Assembly (NCBI GenBank): GCA_003554535.1
Contig: PWGT01000037.1
Coordinates: 1-9,232 of the forward strand
Direction: 5' to 3'
DNA length: 9,232 nucleotides
Source: Syntrophomonadaceae bacterium
GTDB taxonomy: Bacteria; Bacillota_D; Dethiobacteria; DTU022; PWGO01
The translations under genes were made by a program, and so were the position numbers. The notes under the pieces are model-generated. The model worked only from the letters and a program-made list of their open reading frames with translations. It was not told where the DNA came from and searched no databases. Every line of letters starts with the position of its first letter. Position 1 is the first letter of the stretch. Positions 1,017-8,980 of this stretch are shown here, piece after piece.

Positions 1017-2036
1017 TTAATCGATCTCTTTGATAGATACAAAATAGCTTTTATCATCAACAATAACCCGGAAATGTTTTTTGCCGTCGTCAGGCTGGGT
1101 CACGTATTCTGCCAACTCTTGATACCACTTATCAAAACCATCTTTTTTTTCTTTTGCCTCTTCAAGCGTAACTTTTTTAAATGACAACCCATCTCCGGGT
1201 TTGGCTTGTCCTAAACGATATATTTCATAAGAGGCTGCTGTAGCAATTTTCGGATATCCCCCGGTAGTTTGACGATCCTTCATCATTATTATAGGCTGCC
1301 TGTGACCCGGCACCTGGATTGCCCCCAAAGGAATACCATCAGAAATAATATCAGCTTTATCCACATGCATAATTTCCGGACCGGTCAACCTGTAACCCAT
1401 TCGGTCAGCCGCTTCGCTTATTTGAAAATCACCATCAAGAAAAGTTTTAATCCCTTCTTCGGTAAAAAAGTCAGTCTGCGGCCCCATAATTACATCGATC
1501 ACAAAAGGAGGCTGATATAAAGGCCAGCGGTCTTCAGGCAAAGCTCTTCCCAAAGAACCATGCTCTTCGAGAACAGCTAATTCTTCGCCTCCTCTTAAAC
1601 GAGCGCCTTCTACACCACCAATCTTGCCCCTTAGATAGGTAGATCTACTTTGCATTACAACAGGTACATCCAGGCCACCCTGTACGATTACGTACCCGCG
1701 CACCCCTTCAGTGATCCATTCTATTTCAACCTGGTCGTTGGCTTTAACGACAATTGGTTCATATACAGAATATTCCTGGTTTCCATTAACGTTAATAACA
1801 CAGCGTCCGCCGGTAACAACCAGGATGGTATCTTGAAGAATTTCCAGACGGGGACCTTTCAATGTAAATTCTAAAGAAGCCGCATTGGCATCATTCCCCA
1901 GCATCAAGTTTCCCAGCCTGTAAGCAACCTCATCCATGGCGCCTGCCGGGGCCATTCCATAGCGTTGATATCCAAAGCGCCCACCATCTTGAACGGTAGT
2001 AAAAGGTCCGGGTTCCAAAACCTTGATTGCTTGCAT
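1017..2036 (-). CDS. pxpC: 5-oxoprolinase subunit C (biotin-dependent carboxyltransferase-like, KipA family)
   Basis: This is one of three subunits of the cytosolic PxpABC enzyme, which cleaves 5-oxoproline to glutamate with ATP. It has the AHS2 (KipA) fold. In the 339-residue product, KVLEPGPFTTVQDGGRFGYQ (5-24) is the N-terminal family signature. APAGAMD, LEFTLKGPRLEI, a VQGGLDVP segment and, near the C-terminus, MMKDRQTTGGYPKIATAA are all typical. Length is normal for the family. I chose ATG at 2034-2036 rather than the in-frame GTG at 2043-2045, because that GTG is itself part of the AGGTGA ribosome binding site (2042-2047) placed 5 bases before the ATG, and because homologues begin close to this point. 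It is last in the pxpA-pxpB-pxpC order, 51 bases after pxpB. The older KipA annotation (kinase-inhibitor antagonist, from B. subtilis) refers to the same family. Confidence 0.95.
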   Translation of the reverse strand: MQAIKVLEPGPFTTVQDGGRFGYQRYGMAPAGAMDEVAYRLGNLMLGNDANAASLEFTLKGPRLEILQDTILVVTGGRCVINVNGNQEYSVYEPIVVKANDQVEIEWITEGVRGYVIVQGGLDVPVVMQSRSTYLRGKIGGVEGARLRGGEELAVLEEHGSLGRALPEDRWPLYQPPFVIDVIMGPQTDFFTEEGIKTFLDGDFQISEAADRMGYRLTGPEIMHVDKADIISDGIPLGAIQVPGHRQPIIMMKDRQTTGGYPKIATAASYEIYRLGQAKPGDGLSFKKVTLEEAKEKKDGFDKWYQELAEYVTQPDDGKKHFRVIVDDKSYFVSIKEID

Positions 2037-2041
2037 ATAAT

Positions 2042-2047
2042 TCACCT
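2042..2047 (-). promoter_or_regulatory. Ribosome binding site fixing the pxpC start
   Basis: AGGTGA on the minus strand ends 5 bases before ATG 2034-2036. The upstream in-frame GTG (2043-2045) lies inside this site, so it is unlikely to be the start codon. Confidence 0.7.
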
Positions 2048-2087: not shown

Positions 2088-2768
2088 CTACCCGTAGGAT
2101 TTAAATTCTTGCTCGCTAATCGGATAAAATTTAAGGTAATGGCCCGGCTTTGGCAAAAACGGGTCATCCTTGGTCGGATCGAATAATTTCAGGGGAGTCC
2201 GCCCTATTAAACGCCAACCACCGGGACTTTCCAGGGGATAGATACCGGTTTGACTGCCGGCTATACCAACTGACCCGGCAGGTATTTGTGTCCGGGGATT
2301 TTCTAATCGCGGGGTTGCTATTTGCTGTGACATCCCTCCAAGATAGGGAAAACCAGGCACAAAACCCAGCATATAGATTAAGTAAGCGGCGGAATGATGT
2401 ATTTCAATAACTTCTTCAACCGACAGATTGTTATGCTCGGCAACATAATCAATATCCGGACCATATTCTCCCCCGTATACCACGGGAATTTCAAGGGTTT
2501 CCGGATTCGGGATAGCCACCTCTTGCAAATGCTCTTCAATATTAAGCAAAACACTTTTTAAACTTTCAAAATCCCAAACTACCGGGTCATAATAAACCAG
2601 CAAAGACCTGTACGTAGGAACTGTTTCCAAAAGTCCTTCAAGTTCACTTCCATGCCACAAGTAATAATCCGCCGCCCGGACCTTGGAGTTGATATCCGGA
2701 TCGATCCTGTTTTCAAATTCTAATACCGCAGCTTGATCTCCAGCCGGCAAAACGTTAATATTCGACAC
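2088..2768 (-). CDS. pxpB: 5-oxoprolinase subunit B (KipI/AHS1 family)
   Basis: PxpB pairs with PxpC to form the carboxyltransferase-like half of 5-oxoprolinase in the cytoplasm. The 226-residue product shows the full AHS1 pattern: PAGDQAAVLEF near the start (8-18), PTYRSLLVYYDP (51-62), VVYGGEYGPD (96-105), YMLGFVPGFPYLGGM (132-146), TQIPAGSVGIAGSQTGIYP (160-178) and ESPGGWRLIGRTPLKLFDP (180-198). The reading frame can be extended to a TTG at 2817-2819. However, GTG at 2766-2768 has a perfect AGGAGG 8 bases upstream, while the TTG has no ribosome binding site and the extra 17 residues lack family similarity. GTG is therefore the start. The gap to pxpA upstream is 110 bases, unusually wide for this operon, and I see no clear promoter in it. 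In B. subtilis the homologue KipI was first described as an inhibitor of sporulation kinase KinA. Confidence 0.95.
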   Translation of the reverse strand: MSNINVLPAGDQAAVLEFENRIDPDINSKVRAADYYLWHGSELEGLLETVPTYRSLLVYYDPVVWDFESLKSVLLNIEEHLQEVAIPNPETLEIPVVYGGEYGPDIDYVAEHNNLSVEEVIEIHHSAAYLIYMLGFVPGFPYLGGMSQQIATPRLENPRTQIPAGSVGIAGSQTGIYPLESPGGWRLIGRTPLKLFDPTKDDPFLPKPGHYLKFYPISEQEFKSYG

Positions 2769-2776
2769 ATTCCCAG

Positions 2777-2782
2777 CCTCCT
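2777..2782 (-). promoter_or_regulatory. Ribosome binding site fixing the pxpB GTG start
   Basis: AGGAGG on the minus strand is separated by 8 bases from GTG 2766-2768. It lies inside the longer open frame that begins at TTG 2817-2819 and argues for the shorter protein. Confidence 0.75.
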
Positions 2783-2878
2783 GATAAAATTTTGTTTCTA
2801 AGCGCACCCTATCATTCAACCAACCATTTCTACAGCGTTACAAAAAACATGGTCCAACACTTTTAACTTCACCACGAA

Positions 2879-3640
2879 TTACTGCGCCAGTGGTTTAATC
2901 TCAACACCTTCTTCGTTCAACCGAGCTTTTAATTGACTGGTTAATGCTATTGCTTCCGGGTTATCGCCATGCACACATATCGTATCCGGGTTAATGTCAA
3001 TATCCTCTCCCGTGATAGTCTGCACTTTACCTTCTTTAACCATACGCAGCACTCTTTCCACTACTGTTTCGGGATCATGAATTACAGAACCCTCTACTTT
3101 TCTAGAAACCAGCATTCCTTCGTTATCATAAGCGCGGTCTGCAAAACCCTCCCTGGCCACGGTCAGGCCTTCCTTATTCCCTGCTTTCTCCATTTCGGAA
3201 AAAGCAAGGGCAACAAAAACCAGGCCTGGATCCACCGCTTTAATAGCCCTGGCAATTGTGTGCGCCAGTTCACTTTGCACACTGGCCATATTGTTTAAAG
3301 CCCCGTGCGCTTTTACATGAACCATTTTTACCCCGTTAGCCTGGCAAAAAGCCTGCATGGCACCAATCTGATAAATTAACTCATTTTCCAGTTCCTTTGG
3401 CGCTATATCAATTCTTCTACGCCCAAACCCAAAAAGATCAAGAAATCCCGGATGAGCACCAACCCCAACCCCATATTTTTTGGCCAGCTTAACTGTATAA
3501 TCCATAATTTGAGGATCTCCAGCATGAAAACCGCAGGCAATGTTGGCTGATGAAATATTTTTTATCACCTGATCATCAGCACCTATTTTATAGACACCAA
3601 AGCTTTCTCCCATATCACAGTTCAAATCAATCGATTTCAT
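2879..3640 (-). CDS. pxpA: 5-oxoprolinase subunit A (LamB/YcsF family)
   Basis: PxpA is the third subunit of the ATP-dependent 5-oxoprolinase that turns 5-oxoproline into glutamate. The 253-residue product carries the LamB/YcsF pattern throughout: IDLNCDMGESFG (4-15), SANIACGFHAGDP (31-43), VGAHPGFLD followed by GFGRR (60-75), HVKAHGALNN (108-117), FADRAYDNEGMLV (166-178), GSVIHDPE (184-191) and DTICVHGDNP (219-228). The fourth motif is usually VKPHGALYN, so Pro to Ala and Tyr to Asn changes are present; such variants occur in parts of the family as far as I recall. ATG 3638-3640 is preferred over an in-frame TTG six bases upstream because AAAGGGG (3650-3656) lies 9 bases before the ATG and only 3 before the TTG. 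The gene starts about 150 bases after a strong terminator, so pxpABC should have its own promoter, but I see no convincing one. Confidence 0.95.
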   Translation of the reverse strand: MKSIDLNCDMGESFGVYKIGADDQVIKNISSANIACGFHAGDPQIMDYTVKLAKKYGVGVGAHPGFLDLFGFGRRRIDIAPKELENELIYQIGAMQAFCQANGVKMVHVKAHGALNNMASVQSELAHTIARAIKAVDPGLVFVALAFSEMEKAGNKEGLTVAREGFADRAYDNEGMLVSRKVEGSVIHDPETVVERVLRMVKEGKVQTITGEDIDINPDTICVHGDNPEAIALTSQLKARLNEEGVEIKPLAQ

Positions 3641-3946
3641 TAACAACTACCCCTTTCTTTTGAAAATTGTTCCTTCAAGTTACATTCACTTTCCAACGAA
3701 TAAGGTATGATTCGCCAAAGATCGTTTTAATCCCTGCTCATAATAACTCTTAAAGGCTGGGCATGAAATTGTCCTAAAACATTAACCATATAAAAATAGC
3801 CGGCAGGACCGCCGGCCAGTAAAGGTTCATATTAACAATTCACACAGTTGATTTTTCAATTAATACATATAAAGCAAATAAAAGCCTCATAAACATTAAC
3901 TCACTCTATCTGGTTCTTTTAAACGCTTTAACCTTATTAAGAAGTA
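3641..3946. other. Intergenic region between DUF1445 gene and pxpA
   Basis: No credible gene lies in these 306 bases. The right part (3819-3946) is the 3' untranslated end of the DUF1445 transcript. The middle holds a strong terminator (3791-3818). The left part (3641-3790) should contain the pxpABC promoter. On the minus strand it shows AGGACA and TAAGAG 17 bases apart (weak), and short inverted repeats CGAAT/ATTCG (around 3697-3714) and TTGAA/TTCAA (around 3660-3680) that might be operators. None is strong enough to call. Confidence 0.5.
3791..3818 (-). terminator. Strong intrinsic terminator after the DUF1445 gene
   Basis: On the minus strand GCCGGC (3811-3816), a six-base loop GGTCCT and GCCGGC (3799-3804) form a fully paired GC stem. 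A G-T and a T-A pair extend it by two. It is followed at once by TTTTT (3792-3796). It stands about 130 bases after the DUF1445 stop and 150 before pxpA. It should end the five-gene transcript and separate it from pxpABC. Confidence 0.88.
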
Positions 3947-4741
3947 CTACAATGCAGCCAGGGATTCATTCCAAACATCGGTTATAAACATATTTGCTGG
4001 AACATGTGTAATCATCAGTTCAGGCTTACTGTTTAAAGCCACCGCCTGAGGAGTAACTCCACAGGCCCAGAACATAGGAACCTCTCCGGGATTGATATCC
4101 GGAGGATCACCCCAATCCGGGGAACTGAGATCCCTGATTCCAAGACCTTCGGGATTGCCAATATGGGCAGGTGACCCATGCACGGAAGGAAAACGTGCAG
4201 TAACTGTTACTGCACGAGAAACCAGTTGTGAAGGTACCGGTCTCATTGACACAACCAGCGGACCGGAAAACCGTCCTGCAGGGATACAGTCTACTTCAGT
4301 TTTATAAATAGGGCAGTCTTTGCCCTTTTCAATATGCCTGACTGGAACGCCGGCATTTATAAGTGCTTCTTCGAAAGAAAAACTGCAGCCAATTAAGAAG
4401 GCCACCAAATCATCGCGCCACCAGCCAGTAATATCCTGTGTTTCCTCTATACATTCCCCATTTTTAAAAATACGGTACCCGGCGAGATCTGTTCGCAAAT
4501 CAGCTCCTGGGGCTACGGTAAAAGGTTCAGGTGAACCAACCTCTGTAACTTCCAAAATTGGGCATGGCTTTGGATTGCGAAAGCAGAATAATAGAAAATC
4601 ATAAGCATCTTCCCTGGGCAGGATAGCCAGATTAGCCTGGGCATAACCTAGCGCCCAGTTGCTAGTGGTGGCCACCAGGCCATCTCTGAACATCTGCCTG
4701 GCTTCCTTTGGTGTTATTTTTTCTTTATTCTCCTTATTCAT
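3947..4741 (-). CDS. DUF1445/YcsI family protein, putative hydro-lyase, D-glutamate cyclase-like
   Basis: This is a cytosolic protein of 264 residues, normal for the family. RNPKPCPILEVTE (55-67), VAPGADLRTDLAGYR (76-90), WWRDDLVAFLIGCSFSFEEAL (107-127), GPLVVSMRPVP (160-170), RFPSVHGSPAHIG (183-195) and VPMFWACGVTPQAVAL (221-236) are the conserved blocks of YcsI-type proteins. Databases often call these putative hydro-lyases. Mammalian D-glutamate cyclase contains a related domain and interconverts D-glutamate and 5-oxo-D-proline. In B. subtilis ycsI lies inside the pxp (ycsF-kipI-kipA) cluster. Placement just before pxpABC therefore supports a role in supplying 5-oxoproline, but the reaction of this bacterial protein is inference. 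ATG 4739-4741 has AAGGAGG (4748-4754) 6 bases upstream and was chosen over an in-frame TTG directly before it. It follows the unknown gene by only 24 bases and is the last gene of its operon. Confidence 0.93.
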   Translation of the reverse strand: MNKENKEKITPKEARQMFRDGLVATTSNWALGYAQANLAILPREDAYDFLLFCFRNPKPCPILEVTEVGSPEPFTVAPGADLRTDLAGYRIFKNGECIEETQDITGWWRDDLVAFLIGCSFSFEEALINAGVPVRHIEKGKDCPIYKTEVDCIPAGRFSGPLVVSMRPVPSQLVSRAVTVTARFPSVHGSPAHIGNPEGLGIRDLSSPDWGDPPDINPGEVPMFWACGVTPQAVALNSKPELMITHVPANMFITDVWNESLAAL

Positions 4742-4765
4742 CAAAATCCTCCTTATAATTTGATT

Positions 4766-5308
4766 CTATTCTTTCAAAATAGGATTGACTGTTTCGTATA
4801 ATTCTTCCACCCGGTCAGCTATGATATGTAATGATTGGTTTAGGTCACTATAATTTAGTTCATTCTTTGGATCATTAAATTGATGTTCCTTAAAAGCTTC
4901 TTGGTAATCATATACTTTTGGTGGATTATTTAACTTGTTTAGTTTTTCCTTTATTTCTTTTTCCCGTGGGCTCCAAATATGATCCAAAGCATGGACCCCA
5001 ATAGTATATGTAATGGGCCATTCGTTTACAAAAAACAAAACCCCGACATGAGCTTCCTCAGGAGGATATCCTTCAAATCCAAAGCAGACCCAATCCAAAA
5101 AAAACGGTTCCTCCATGTCGGGATGCAAAGCTTGAACTTTTTCTCCTGCATAAGGACCAACCCATTCCTGAACTTGAGGATATTTGTCTTTCAATTTATT
5201 TTTTGCAATTCTTCCTATTTCAGAAATAAAGCGAGGGAAAAGCTTGTCATACTCGCTTTTGTTCTCAACACATGCTTTTAACTTTTCAACATTTATGTCT
5301 TCCCACAC
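4766..5308 (-). CDS. Uncharacterised 180-residue cytosolic protein in the symporter operon
   Basis: I do not recognise this family. There is no signal peptide or membrane span. The N-terminal third is charged and probably helical. The centre (about 62-113) is the most structured-looking part and is rich in aromatic residues, Trp and His: FFLDWVCFGFEGYPPEEAHV, then FFVNEWPITYTIGVHALDHIW. The C-terminal part is again charged and helical. The aromatic core faintly recalls DUF1054-like proteins, but I would not assign that. The start is uncertain: TTG codons at 5315-5317 and 5312-5314 and GTG at 5306-5308 share one reading frame. AAGGAGG (5318-5324) sits 9 bases before the GTG and within 3 of the TTGs, so GTG is preferred. 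It lies between the symporter and DUF1445, 24 bases before the latter, so it is co-transcribed and probably belongs to the same pathway. Confidence 0.85.
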   Translation of the reverse strand: MWEDINVEKLKACVENKSEYDKLFPRFISEIGRIAKNKLKDKYPQVQEWVGPYAGEKVQALHPDMEEPFFLDWVCFGFEGYPPEEAHVGVLFFVNEWPITYTIGVHALDHIWSPREKEIKEKLNKLNNPPKVYDYQEAFKEHQFNDPKNELNYSDLNQSLHIIADRVEELYETVNPILKE

Positions 5309-5317
5309 CTGCAACAA

Positions 5318-5324
5318 CCTCCTT
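5318..5324 (-). promoter_or_regulatory. Ribosome binding site of the 180-residue protein
   Basis: AAGGAGG on the minus strand is 9 bases from GTG 5306-5308. The two TTG codons between them are too close to be good starts. Confidence 0.7.
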
Positions 5325-5340
5325 GCCTGCCTGTTGATAT

Positions 5341-5389
5341 GGCTGTGGAGATACCTTTTACCTTTGAATAGGCTCAGATCTCCACAGCC
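5341..5389. repeat. Perfect 12-bp inverted repeat between symporter and unknown gene
   Basis: GGCTGTGGAGAT (5341-5352) and ATCTCCACAGCC (5378-5389) are perfect reverse complements around a 25-base spacer. On the plus strand the right arm is followed by TTTTT (5390-5394), giving the shape of an intrinsic terminator for plus-strand transcription. No plus-strand gene is present to need one. In the minus-strand mRNA the hairpin begins 14 bases after the symporter stop and has an A-run before it and no U-run after it. It could protect the symporter mRNA end, act as a processing site, or stop antisense transcription. Confidence 0.85.
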
Positions 5390-5403
5390 TTTTTCAAACT
5401 AAA

Positions 5404-6864
5404 CTATTGCTCTGATTTTTTTTCAAAGTACCTACTGATCTGTGCTTCCTCCGGAGGCTTGGTCGTATAGCTTAAAACAGCCATTAATATAATTCCAACG
5501 AGAACTCCAACCCCGGTGGGGGGCGCCTCAACATCATATGGCCAATGACCCAAAATCGCTAAAGTTTGCGCAATCACAAATGTCAGTAGGCCACCGACAA
5601 CGGAACCGATTGCTGCAGTTGTATTTGCTCTCTTTGAATACAAACCCCATAGAGTGGGAGCAAAATAAAGGATGGCCAGCAAACCCCAGGCATAACCTGC
5701 GATAAAAGTTATCCATGCCCACCGGTATAAAGCAATAATTGCTACGAAAATCACCAAACCGATAGAAAAGTAACGAGATATTTTAAGTAGAGCATGGTCA
5801 GATATGTCAGGTTTAAAACCTTCTTTGATTACATTATTTGTCAAATAACTGGCACATAACTGGATTACACTATCGGTGGTTGATAAAGCTGCAGCAGTTA
5901 GACCAGCTAAAAATAGAGCATACAATCCTAGTGGTGCATACTCAAGCACAACAACTGCTCCAATGTGATCTCTCGTATAACCCATGGGCAACTCGGGATC
6001 AAAGGCAGCGCCCCATAACCCGAAAACAACGAATGTTAAATTAATAACTGCCAAAATAGGCCATGCATACATGTATTGCTTTAAAGCCACTCTTTCGTCT
6101 ATTGCTGCGGATATCCTAATTAAGTATTGCGGATGAGCGGCTACCCCAAAACACCAGGTCAGGAAAAGGAAAAATATACCGATTGGGCCACCCATTCCAC
6201 GCGTCAAAGCACCAAGTTCGGGAGCTCTATCTATGGCCATACTTGCCACATCCGTAAAAGCCGGACCTGTGATTACCATATACCCCGCAGCTAAAACTGA
6301 TGCAGAAAAGAAAATGATCGCTTTGGCAATATCAGAGTATGCCACTGAAACAAGACCTCCAGCGGCAACGATAATTAATATACTAACAGAAGCAACTATA
6401 ACACCCAGTGTAAAAGTTCCTTCCAAGGCGACGCTCCATACAATACCCATTGCCGTAAACTGAGCTACTAAGCCGAAGATCAAAGCGATAACACTTACGG
6501 CACTAATAAGTATTTCTAAAAATTTTGATTGATAACGATGCCTAAAAAAGTCAGCCGGGGTAGAATAATGTAATCTCTTATATCTCATAGCAATTATAAC
6601 TGTTCCTACAGCCCCAAGTGACCAGAACATCGGCAACCACAGAAATGAAAATCCCTGAGAATAAACTCCTGAAGGAATGCCCATCACTGTAACAGCACTC
6701 AAATAAGTAGCTGTGTATGTTCCTACCAGGGGCAATATTCCCAGTCCTTTACCACCTGTAAAAAAGTCTTCAGCTGTTTTTACCCGTCTGGCATACCATA
6801 AGCCGACAATGATATAAGCTAAAATAGTCCCGCCAACGACTAAAGCACCAAGCCAAACTATCAT
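5404..6864 (-). CDS. Sodium:solute symporter (SSS family)
   Basis: This is an integral membrane transporter of 486 residues, a typical SSS length, with about 13 hydrophobic segments. Family marks are the N-terminal ARRVKTAEDFFTGGKGLG loop (25-42), TATYLSAVTVMGIPSGVYSQG in the first core helix (51-71), GLVSVAYSDIAKAIIFF (170-186), and AALSTTDSVIQ (325-335). The last contains the Ser/Thr residues that usually line the Na2 site. The overall look is closest to PanF-like members, but the substrate cannot be read from sequence. Context (5-oxoprolinase, D-glutamate cyclase-like and dipeptidase-like genes) suggests a glutamate-derived compound or dipeptide. In B. subtilis the matching place in the cluster is taken by YcsG, a transporter of another family. 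ATG 6862-6864 has AAGGAGGT (6871-6878) 6 bases upstream. The tiny membrane-protein gene ends 18 bases before it, so the two are translated from one transcript. Confidence 0.93.
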   Translation of the reverse strand: MIVWLGALVVGGTILAYIIVGLWYARRVKTAEDFFTGGKGLGILPLVGTYTATYLSAVTVMGIPSGVYSQGFSFLWLPMFWSLGAVGTVIIAMRYKRLHYSTPADFFRHRYQSKFLEILISAVSVIALIFGLVAQFTAMGIVWSVALEGTFTLGVIVASVSILIIVAAGGLVSVAYSDIAKAIIFFSASVLAAGYMVITGPAFTDVASMAIDRAPELGALTRGMGGPIGIFFLFLTWCFGVAAHPQYLIRISAAIDERVALKQYMYAWPILAVINLTFVVFGLWGAAFDPELPMGYTRDHIGAVVVLEYAPLGLYALFLAGLTAAALSTTDSVIQLCASYLTNNVIKEGFKPDISDHALLKISRYFSIGLVIFVAIIALYRWAWITFIAGYAWGLLAILYFAPTLWGLYSKRANTTAAIGSVVGGLLTFVIAQTLAILGHWPYDVEAPPTGVGVLVGIILMAVLSYTTKPPEEAQISRYFEKKSEQ

Positions 6865-6882
6865 AATTTTACCTCCTTAGAT

Positions 6883-6990
6883 TTAATCCTGGTAATAAAA
6901 TTTAAGGTAAATATAAGTTACAATTGATGGAGCTAACCAAGCAATAAACGCTACGAGAAGAAAGAGCATCGCACTAGTTACCAAATCCAT
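6883..6990 (-). CDS. 35-residue single-span membrane protein, probable symporter partner
   Basis: This short gene sits directly before the symporter. The 35-codon frame from ATG 6988-6990 to TAA 6883-6885 encodes MDLVTSAMLFLLVAFIAWLA at its N-terminus. This is one hydrophobic span of about 20 residues (roughly 7-26), followed by a Tyr-rich polar tail ending YYQD. Translation is well supported: AAGGAGGTGA (6995-7004) is an almost ideal ribosome binding site at proper distance. The stop is 18 bases from the symporter ATG, and the symporter's own ribosome binding site fills that gap. One-span partners encoded next to sodium symporters are known, for example MetS beside MetP in the NSS family, and DUF3311-type proteins beside SSS members are larger. 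A role in assembly or activity of this symporter is inference from position. Confidence 0.82.
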   Translation of the reverse strand: MDLVTSAMLFLLVAFIAWLAPSIVTYIYLKFYYQD

Positions 6991-6994
6991 TTTG

Positions 6995-7004
6995 TCACCT
7001 CCTT
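6995..7004 (-). promoter_or_regulatory. Strong ribosome binding site of the 35-residue protein
   Basis: AAGGAGGTGA on the minus strand is complementary to the 16S rRNA tail over ten bases and lies 4 bases (7 from the AGGAGG core) before ATG 6988-6990. It is one of the best such sites in the window and is the main evidence that the tiny gene is real. Confidence 0.8.
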
Positions 7005-7056
7005 CCAAATTCAGATTATATTAACTAGGTGGATAATATTGCCGCAAACAAATTAG

Positions 7057-7085
7057 CATATATAGCATGAATAATCATGATACAA
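7057..7085 (-). promoter_or_regulatory. Possible promoter before the small membrane protein
   Basis: On the minus strand TTGTAT (7080-7085) precedes TATATG (7057-7062) by 17 bases, or the overlapping TATATA (7059-7064), which has an extended TG two bases upstream, by 15. It falls in the 121-base gap between the M19 gene and the tiny gene. A CATGA/TCATG inverted repeat (7066-7079) lies between the two boxes. The region is AT-rich, so chance matches are likely. Confidence 0.3.
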
Positions 7086-7111
7086 AATATCTGTCCGTCC
7101 TGTTAAATCAA

Positions 7112-8089
7112 TCATTCTCCCCAGACTTTCTTAAAAAGCCTTAGAAAGTTACCTCCCATTATAGCTCTTGCCTCTTTTTCAGAATAATTCCTTTTTAAAA
7201 GTCCATCCCAAACATTCCTTAATTCAGCGCTGTTTTCAACTCCTTTGGGAAACTTGACCGGCCAGGGCATTGTGCCGGGCGTATGATAGCTACCGATCCC
7301 ACTACGGGTCGTAAAAAATTCATAGGGCTGACCCTCAACAAAATCAGTGCCAACCCCAACTTGATCAACTCCGAGCAAATCTACGAGGTAATCTATATTA
7401 TCCAAATATTTGTCAAGGTGCTGTTCAGACTCCTTGTCTGATAAAAAAGTCGGGAATGCATTAGCACCCACCACTCCACCTTTTTCCGCCAAAGCTTTCA
7501 AACATTCATCACTTTTATTTCGCGCCACCTGGTATAATGTACTCGGATTAGCGTGCGTAAAAGCACAGGGTTGCTCAGAATGTTCTATCGCTTCTAAAGA
7601 TGTCCTTTCACCTACATGGGAGAGATCTATCAAGATATTAAGAGCATTGAGCTCTCTCACTAAATCCCTTCCAAAATCAGATAACCCTACATTACTCTTT
7701 TCTATACAGCCATCTCCAACCAGGTTGCGTTGGTTATATGTAATCTGAATTACATTTACACCTATCCTTTTATATAAAGCCAATAAATCCAAATTGTCTT
7801 CCACAGGCGAGGTGTTTTGAAAATTAAGTATCACTGCAACCTTTCCTTCTTGCTTCGCTCTTTCTATGTCTCCGGCTGTAAAAGCCTGCCGGATTATATC
7901 CCCATTCTCCCTAAAACATCTATACCAGCTTCCCAGCAAATCCATTGTCTCTCGGCAAGAATGGAGAGCCGTCACAGTAGTGCTGACTGCTGTTATCTTT
8001 GATTCTTTTAAGTACTCCATATAATCCCTGGTAAATAAGCTGTAATCCAATGCATTAATAACAATCGAATCTTCATACCCGTTACCCAT
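7112..8089 (-). CDS. Peptidase M19 (membrane/renal dipeptidase type) family protein, divergent metal site
   Basis: This is a 325-residue TIM-barrel amidohydrolase-type protein without signal peptide, so probably cytosolic. Conserved M19 segments are LIDLSHVG (153-160, His158), FTHANPSTL (177-185, His179), VARNKSDE (188-195, Arg190), GGVVGANAF (204-212), VGVGTDF (244-250, Asp249) and IMGGNFLRLF (310-319). Classical enzymes start with a DGHND motif holding two metal ligands and have a bridging Glu in an EGG-type motif. Here these places read INALD (11-15) and NFQNTSP (89-95, Gln91), and the substrate-binding His region reads ITYNQRN (Tyr118). I recall a subfamily sharing this FQNTSP...QLTYN pattern, so it is not random decay. 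Whether it cleaves dipeptides is open. ATG 8087-8089 has AGGAG 10 bases upstream. It is the first gene of the operon leading to the symporter and DUF1445. Confidence 0.92.
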   Translation of the reverse strand: MGNGYEDSIVINALDYSLFTRDYMEYLKESKITAVSTTVTALHSCRETMDLLGSWYRCFRENGDIIRQAFTAGDIERAKQEGKVAVILNFQNTSPVEDNLDLLALYKRIGVNVIQITYNQRNLVGDGCIEKSNVGLSDFGRDLVRELNALNILIDLSHVGERTSLEAIEHSEQPCAFTHANPSTLYQVARNKSDECLKALAEKGGVVGANAFPTFLSDKESEQHLDKYLDNIDYLVDLLGVDQVGVGTDFVEGQPYEFFTTRSGIGSYHTPGTMPWPVKFPKGVENSAELRNVWDGLLKRNYSEKEARAIMGGNFLRLFKKVWGE

Positions 8090-8279
8090 TACCTATTCTC
8101 TCCTCTCAAGAATAATTTATACGATACACAAAGACCAAATAATTTTTTATTATTTGTTATTCTAAATTATCAGAATAGTACTGAGTTTTCACATCGAGAA
8201 AAACATTAATGAGCAGTCTCATACAAACCTAAATAACAACAGAATAATTATACTTTGCAACGATATGTTATTATTTTTA

Positions 8280-8310
8280 ATTTTACATCACCAAAATAAT
8301 AATGTAAAAT
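8280..8310. repeat. 9-bp perfect inverted repeat, ATTTTACAT/ATGTAAAAT
   Basis: ATTTTACAT (8280-8288) and ATGTAAAAT (8302-8310) are perfect reverse complements with a 13-base spacer. It lies about 190 bases before the M19 ATG. It could be a regulator site or a leader hairpin. Because the surroundings are extremely AT-rich, chance is possible. Confidence 0.5.
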
Positions 8311-8608: not shown

Positions 8609-8980
8609 TCAGTCATTACAGGTTTTTTCACTAAAAGATCCTTTCTTAATATGGTCGGAAAGCTTTGAATTCTGCAGGTCCGGTTCAGAAAGGTAAAATT
8701 TGTTATCTTCAGTAACTTTTACAATATCTAACTGGACAAGAGTGTCAAAAACGTAAGGTTTGTAATCACGAACCTTAAACAAGCGCTCAGTCATTGTGCT
8801 ATCAGCAACTCCAGATAATCCCAACTCCATCTTTGACCTGGCTTTATCAGGACCCACAGCATCATTAGCTCTAAATGTTTTAATTACGTAATTTATATCA
8901 CGTCTCATCAGGTATCTAAACAGGAAATAACCCACAGCCAATATGGAAAAAACCAGAAGAAAAAATATTAAATAAGCCAT
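8609..8980 (-). CDS. Uncharacterised 123-residue protein with one N-terminal membrane span
   Basis: I do not recognise a named family. Residues 3-24 form one strong hydrophobic span, followed by YLMRRD. The positive charges after it predict the N-terminus outside and the C-terminal about 95 residues in the cytoplasm. The soluble part holds a central stretch, LFKVRDYKPYVFDTLVQLD (67-85), then IVKVTEDNKFYLSE (86-99). The second piece looks like a helix followed by a beta hairpin, as in winged-helix folds, but this is a weak resemblance. The C-terminal 20 residues are charged and probably unstructured. ATG 8978-8980 was chosen because the hydrophobic span begins right there. Its ribosome binding site is poor: GGGAG lies about 14 bases away. 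The gene stands alone, closed by a strong terminator, and shows no functional link to the operon after it. Confidence 0.8.
   Translation of the reverse strand: MAYLIFFLLVFSILAVGYFLFRYLMRRDINYVIKTFRANDAVGPDKARSKMELGLSGVADSTMTERLFKVRDYKPYVFDTLVQLDIVKVTEDNKFYLSEPDLQNSKLSDHIKKGSFSEKTCND

What the first reader, a model, noticed from the sequence alone, without database searches (positions are those of the whole stretch)
3947..8089. Transport and D-glutamate/5-oxoproline breakdown module next to pxpABC
Seen: an M19 protein, a tiny membrane protein, an SSS symporter, an unknown protein and DUF1445 lie in one direction and are followed by pxpABC. Known: PxpABC hydrolyses 5-oxoproline to glutamate. 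A DUF1445-related domain occurs in mammalian D-glutamate cyclase. Bacterial M19 enzymes often accept dipeptides with a C-terminal D-residue. B. subtilis groups ycsI with the pxp genes. Inference: the set imports a D-glutamate- or pyroglutamate-containing compound, perhaps a cell-wall fragment, and converts it through 5-oxoproline to glutamate. A step that inverts 5-oxo-D-proline would be missing unless one of the unknown proteins does it.
Basis: partly seen in the sequence, partly recalled or inferred. Interest (0 to 1): 0.7.

Follow-up and report, generated by a model that had tools for sequence, protein, structure and literature searches.

The report
5-oxoproline gene cluster with odd neighbours

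Summary
The genes are really there, all on the minus strand: M19 homologue, 35-aa membrane protein, SSS symporter, 180-aa unknown, DUF1445, then pxpA, pxpB, pxpC. The host is probably Bacillota. DUF1445 beside pxpABC is ordinary: 32 of 40 Bacillota DUF1445 stretches have pxp genes within 5 kb, all on the same strand. The other neighbours look lineage-specific: this M19 type was near pxp or DUF1445 in 0 of 80 loci, and the M19 and unknown genes were in 0 of 40 DUF1445 stretches. A terminator-like site separates the two halves.

The M19 protein is not a normal dipeptidase: it lacks HxD, and Gln replaces a conserved Glu. This removes the basis for a D-dipeptide role. The unknown protein may have a DUF1054-like fold.

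Across 99 loci DUF1445 lies near pxp genes (41), near DUF4392, the second domain of mammalian D-glutamate cyclase (26), near both (3) or near neither (29). This ties DUF1445 to 5-oxoproline, but shows neither its reaction nor its stereochemistry. Two cysteines are nearly invariant. I favour a 5-oxoproline scavenging unit with a lineage-specific importer.

The parts
7112..8089 (-). M19 homologue of the 2i5g type, 325 aa, altered metal site (no HxD, Q91 for Glu; H158, H179, R190, D249 kept)
   Evidence: PF01244 E 9e-80; nearest solved structure 2i5g E 1e-67; residue comparison
6883..6990 (-). 35-aa single-span membrane protein, 18 bp before the symporter gene; possible small subunit
   Evidence: Shine-Dalgarno-like GGAGGT before the ATG; one TM-like segment; no Pfam match at E<=10
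5404..6864 (-). SSS-family sodium:solute symporter, 486 aa; substrate unknown
   Evidence: PF00474 E 2e-32; ten NCBIfam matches, all below their cut-offs; no match at E<=1e-60 in 259 genomes of the phylum of G672
5341..5389 (-). 12-bp perfect inverted repeat in the SSS-unknown gap, no T-run; role unknown
   Evidence: gap folds at -29.9 kcal/mol
4766..5308 (-). unknown protein, 180 aa, possibly DUF1054-like fold, rare family
3947..4741 (-). DUF1445 / PF07286 protein, 264 aa, C120 and C228 present (numbering from the 4744 start)
   Evidence: NF003969 392.8 bits, cut-off 324; conservation; model pLDDT 89.6 matches 2pif and 3db9
3797..3818 (-). intrinsic-terminator-like stem-loop with T-run between DUF1445 and pxpA
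   Evidence: 9 pairs, 6 G-C, listed first of 13 sites, 7.8 expected from shuffles; folded
2879..3640 (-). pxpA, 5-oxoprolinase subunit A
   Evidence: NF003814 371.1 bits, cut-off 226; three equivalog models below their cut-offs
2088..2819 (-). pxpB, 5-oxoprolinase subunit B
   Evidence: TIGR00370 217 bits, cut-off 145.55
1017..2045 (-). pxpC, carboxyltransferase-like subunit
   Evidence: TIGR00724 284.2 bits, cut-off 230.2; PxpC equivalog NF045499 217.9, cut-off 500, also missed by the three PxpC of pxp clusters tested

Best explanation
A 5-oxoproline (pyroglutamate) scavenging locus of a Bacillota bacterium. PxpABC opens the L-lactam ring with ATP to give L-glutamate. The DUF1445 protein acts on the same 5-oxoproline/glutamate pool, most likely letting forms that PxpABC cannot use (such as the D-lactam) enter it. 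The SSS symporter with its 35-aa partner takes the place of the usual NRAMP-type importer and brings in 5-oxoproline or a close derivative with sodium. The M19 homologue and the DUF1054-like protein are lineage-specific additions. They may release or bind the imported compound, but not as a normal zinc D-dipeptidase. Shown by sequence: gene content, order, PxpABC and DUF1445 membership, the altered M19 site, and the DUF1445-pxp and DUF1445-DUF4392 associations. Inferred: every substrate, the transport role, and any common role of the two halves.
For: PxpA (subfamily model), PxpB and DUF1445 pass curated cut-offs. 32 of 40 Bacillota DUF1445 stretches have pxp genes within 5 kb, all on the same strand; 18 of 40 also have an NRAMP-family match and 4 of 40 an SSS match, in 3 of these next to pxpA and in 1 about 3 kb from it, so an SSS in the importer's place has some precedent. 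Annotated examples are L084, L085, L086. DUF1445 also lies near DUF4392 in 10 of 20, 11 of 20, 1 of 17 and 7 of 40 stretches, 3 of them with pxp as well. The two modules share 5-oxoproline as metabolite (from the papers). C. glutamicum needs pxpT and pxpABC to grow on 5-oxo-L-proline (PMC13274462, abstract, section 6 and passages), and 'ycsI' and 'hydro-lyase' do not occur in that text; so DUF1445 is probably an accessory for something other than hydrolysis of the L-form.
Against: No experiment on any of these proteins. The terminator and 300-bp gap allow the upstream genes to be an unrelated unit. The window's SSS is only 26-27% identical to the pxp-linked SSS found. The 2i5g-type M19 elsewhere sits beside FAD oxidoreductases and other genes, not pxp. 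B. subtilis YcsG, the NRAMP member, is reported as a Mn importer (PMC10448178, passages), so the importer slot itself is disputed. 29 of 99 DUF1445 loci had neither pxp nor DUF4392 near. PxpC is below its equivalog cut-off, though so are three PxpC of other pxp clusters.
Confidence: 0.5

Rival explanations
1. Two independent neighbours: the M19-tiny-SSS-unknown genes form a separate catabolic unit for another small nitrogen compound (such as an N-methylated or D-amino acid), and only DUF1445 and pxpABC concern 5-oxoproline.
For: This M19 type was near pxp or DUF1445 in 0 of 80 loci. Of 126 flanking ORFs scanned, 16 match the DAO family of FAD oxidoreductases; of the 80 loci, 7 have a relative of the flavin oxidoreductase of L285 and 7 an M81 relative. 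Plasmid examples lie beside ethanolamine ammonia-lyase, hydantoinase/oxoprolinase, DUF5943 and flavin oxidoreductase genes and M81. 103-bp gap after M19.
Against: The unknown gene is 21 bp from DUF1445, and both have relatives on contigs of the same length, 4823 bases, from the same source (P0002, P0128). Same strand throughout. An SSS match lay in only 1 of the 80 M19 loci, L003.
Confidence: 0.3
2. One reading: import of a D-glutamate- or pyroglutamate-containing cell-wall fragment, cleavage by M19, cyclisation of D-glutamate by DUF1445, inversion, and ring opening by PxpABC.
For: DUF1445 is one of the two domains of mammalian D-glutamate cyclase (PMC5339696, passages; PMC5132392, passages) and is linked to pxpABC.
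Against: M19 metal site altered. No DUF4392 in the window. Which domain cyclises was not settled in the passages read. For lactams the closed ring is the favoured form and opening is driven by ATP (PMC8453981, passages), while glutamate racemase would invert D-glutamate without cost (general knowledge).
Confidence: 0.12
3. DUF1445 is not an enzyme but a metabolite-binding regulator of the 5-oxoprolinase.
Against: 48 positions conserved in at least 97% of rows, with two near-invariant cysteines and an invariant H189, look more like an active site. A shared fold shows no function.
Confidence: 0.08

Closest known systems
pxpABC with ycsI (DUF1445) and an NRAMP gene, as in Bacillus (5-oxoprolinase cluster)
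   Same: pxpA, pxpB, pxpC and DUF1445 close together; annotated example L084, where pxpB and pxpC are on the opposite strand
   Different: No NRAMP and no AccB/AccC here; an SSS symporter, tiny membrane protein, M19 homologue and possibly DUF1054-like protein instead; a terminator-like site between DUF1445 and pxpA
C. glutamicum pxpTABC (PMC13274462)
   Same: importer gene plus pxpABC
   Different: importer is NRAMP-type; no DUF1445, M19 or DUF1054-like gene is named in the parts read
Mammalian D-glutamate cyclase (DUF1445 + DUF4392)
   Same: shares the DUF1445 domain
   Different: the window protein has PF07286 alone, and no DUF4392 match lies in the window
M19 membrane (renal) dipeptidases
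   Same: sequence family; H158, H179, R190, D249 kept
   Different: HxD lost, Glu to Gln, as in the rest of the 2i5g-type subfamily
DUF1054 (YktB, 2a8e; 3mqz)
   Same: predicted fold over nearly the whole chain
   Different: 10% identity; no profile match

Membership tests
PxpABC 5-oxoprolinase | PxpA, PxpB and PxpC homologues together, above a curated cut-off each | tested here: met
   NF003814 (subfamily), TIGR00370 (equivalog), TIGR00724 (domain) passed; the PxpA and PxpC equivalog models were not reached, nor the PxpC one by PxpC of L084, L085, L255
PxpABC 5-oxoprolinase | ATP-dependent hydrolysis of 5-oxo-L-proline | not testable with these tools
   needs an assay
UPF0317/YcsI (DUF1445) | NF003969 equivalog and PF07286 over cut-off | tested here: met
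   392.8 bits, cut-off 324; 215.3 bits, cut-off 25
D-glutamate cyclase (mammalian type) | DUF1445 and DUF4392 domains in one protein | tested here: not met
   the protein matches PF07286 alone; no DUF4392 match in the window at E<=1; the rest of the genome is not held
D-glutamate cyclase (mammalian type) | conversion of D-glutamate to 5-oxo-D-proline | not testable with these tools
   needs an assay
M19 zinc dipeptidase | M19 domain | tested here: met
   PF01244 E 9e-80
M19 zinc dipeptidase | HxD and Glu metal ligands (roles recalled from renal dipeptidase) | tested here: not met
   HxD 0 of 21 subfamily rows, 27 of 30 ordinary M19; Q 21 of 21 against E 30 of 30
SSS symporter | PF00474 over cut-off, many membrane spans | tested here: met
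   113 bits, cut-off 22.8; 11 TM-like segments by simple hydropathy
DUF1054 (YktB) | sequence profile match or clear structural match | tested here: inconclusive

The most novel reading that the evidence does not exclude
DUF1445 is a two-cysteine 5-oxoproline epimerase: paired with DUF4392 it completes D-glutamate disposal, and paired with PxpABC it turns 5-oxo-D-proline into the L-form that the ATP-dependent enzyme opens. Against it: the mouse two-domain protein is reported to yield 5-oxo-D-proline, and people excrete mainly the D-form (PMC5339696, passages).
Probability: 0.15. Interest if true: 0.75.

Novelty: new variant of a known kind. Interest (0 to 1): 0.38.

Why it matters
Bacterial DUF1445 proteins are named 'putative hydro-lyase' or YcsI/UPF0317 by most sources that name them, and Pfam calls the domain D-Glu_cyclase, probably by transfer from a two-domain mammalian protein. 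The partner switching seen here, between pxpABC and DUF4392 with three loci holding both, narrows its likely substrate to the 5-oxoproline/glutamate pool and gives a simple test of its reaction. It also warns against reading D-dipeptidase activity into 2i5g-type M19 proteins, which lack key metal ligands.

Tried and rejected
The D-dipeptidase role for M19 was rejected on its metal site. Searches for the unknown protein found nothing in genome contigs (38 pattern matches, none a relative), viral contigs (21 pattern matches, none a relative), 288 genomes (relatives of G002), and 3 and 398 genomes (class and phylum of G672). These genome searches had no positive control. Profile searches of the unknown protein gave no match or only chance-level rows, none for DUF1054. 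Rfam found no RNA family in the window at gathering scores, and no tRNA was found. Relatives of the SSS: plasmids, best listed identity 29%; PDB, best rows the choline transporter at E 5e-13; 259 genomes, none at E<=1e-60; none tells the substrate. The DUF1445 tree did not place the window clade firmly with pxp-linked or DUF4392-linked rows, and its bootstrap had not settled. No paper on the enzymology of bacterial DUF1445 was seen in the listings (44 listed 20 of 117 papers, 18 listed 20 of 23, 103 listed 15 of 18). The Niehaus 2017 5-oxoprolinase paper is not held and is known here only through citing papers and memory. Listings on the 2i5g-type M19 (10 of 58, 10 of 25) and on DUF1054 (8 of 11) gave nothing usable; (NrpR) was seen as a listing, 8 of 24.
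Full report
WHAT IS THERE. The window holds one gene series on the minus strand: a 123-aa single-span ORF (8609-8980), M19 homologue (7112-8089), 35-aa membrane protein (6883-6990), SSS symporter (5404-6864), 180-aa unknown (4766-5308), DUF1445 (3947-4741), pxpA, pxpB, pxpC and the start of valS. The gaps are 519, 103, 18, 86, 21, 300, 59, 42 and 224 bp, measured from the longest ORF starts. A stem with T-run at 3818-3797, listed first in the terminator scan (13 sites found, 7.8 expected from shuffles), lies in the 300-bp gap. A 12-bp perfect inverted repeat without a T-run lies between SSS and the unknown gene. No whole genome is held. The valS part is 66-67% identical to six genomes of that phylum, 58-60% to three others of it (G174, G725, G864) and 55-58% to three genomes of other phyla (G016, G004, G041). 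So the host is probably Bacillota; the window's close DUF1445 homologue P0131 is also labelled so.

DUF1445 AND PXP. I took stretches of up to 20 kb (some cut by contig ends) around DUF1445 genes found with PF07286 and looked for neighbours by tblastn. Bacillota: 42 of 249 genomes have the gene; 40 of 43 places were taken, leaving out three partial matches. pxp genes lie within 5 kb in 32 of 40, all on the DUF1445 strand; NRAMP-family matches in 18, SSS in 4, DUF4392 in 7, valS in 2, M19 and the unknown in 0. Pseudomonadota (phylum of G041, Caballeronia): 16 of 150 genomes, all 17 places taken: pxp in 6, in two of these 7-8 kb away, DUF4392 in 1. Chloroflexota (phylum of G004): 32 of 151 genomes, 20 of 34 places taken: pxp in 2, DUF4392 in 11. 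Fourth set: of the 80 genomes with this M19 type I searched 40, and 20 have DUF1445; L001's genome, searched apart, also has it. 20 of the 22 places were taken: pxp in 1, DUF4392 in 10. DUF4392 was confirmed with Pfam for 8 of 71 neighbour ORFs of that set, elsewhere by tblastn only. Thus DUF1445 with pxpABC is ordinary in Bacillota, and DUF1445 with DUF4392 is common in Chloroflexota. Three stretches (L182, L261, L274) hold both.

TREE. With 99 of 100 loci (L118 dropped, hit too short), the window and six close homologues, labels were pxp within 8 kb 41, DUF4392 within 4 kb 26, both 3, neither 29. All six groups together need 21 changes, against 53.9 in shuffles; the pxp label needs 16, at least 6 of them forced by well-supported branches. 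So partners are inherited but have switched repeatedly. The window clade holds only unlabelled close homologues and is not firmly placed; support is rough. Of 104 rows, leaving out a deviant branch of two (L127, L128), C120 is kept in 103 and C228 in 104.

THE M19 HOMOLOGUE. Nearest solved structure is 2i5g. Against the 30 best-scoring M19 places of a search in which 120 of 149 genomes matched, the 21-row subfamily (window included) lacks HxD (0 of 21 against 27 of 30) and has Gln where the others have Glu (21 of 21 against 30 of 30), while H158, H179, R190 and D249 are kept in all 51. The profile alignment with Dipeptidase 1 (9h0b) shows the same Glu-to-Gln difference. Which residue binds which metal is recalled. 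None has pxp or DUF1445; one has an SSS match and one valS. Of 136 flanking ORFs 126 were scanned and 16 match DAO. In the 80 loci, relatives of the L285 flavin oxidoreductase occur in 7, of M81 in 7, of DUF5943 in 2, of HyuB in 1, of a TRAP permease in 1; HyuA, EutB and DUF4392 gave none.

VERDICT. The 5-oxoproline part is known and widespread. The upstream genes are a lineage-specific variant whose role is open. The D-glutamate cell-wall reading loses its M19 step and its proof for DUF1445, but a D-form role for DUF1445 remains possible and testable.

Noticed in passing
L109-L113, L115-L117, L121, L122, L194-L199, L201-L204, L206, and L253, L258, L264, L266, L270: DUF1445 gene with a DUF4392 (PF14336-type) gene within a few kb, mostly next to it: a two-gene form of mammalian D-glutamate cyclase
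   Followed up: yes
L182, L261, L274: DUF1445, DUF4392 and pxp genes in one cluster
   Followed up: partly
L127, L128: Deviant DUF1445 branch with Ser in place of the conserved C120
   Followed up: no
L248, L250, L251, L252: An SSS symporter match in the same stretch as pxpA, next to it in three and about 3 kb away in L252, so the SSS-pxp pairing is not unique to the window
   Followed up: partly
5341-5389: 12-bp perfect inverted repeat between the SSS and unknown genes, strong predicted hairpin without T-run
   Followed up: no
8142-8183 and 8263-8304: Diverged AT-rich 42-base direct repeat (74%) upstream of the M19 gene
   Followed up: no
8609-8980: 123-aa ORF with one N-terminal membrane span and no Pfam match
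   Followed up: no
L022, L026, L285: 2i5g-type M19 together with DUF5943; some homologues carry PF02830 and PF19367 in the same chain, for example P0122
   Followed up: partly
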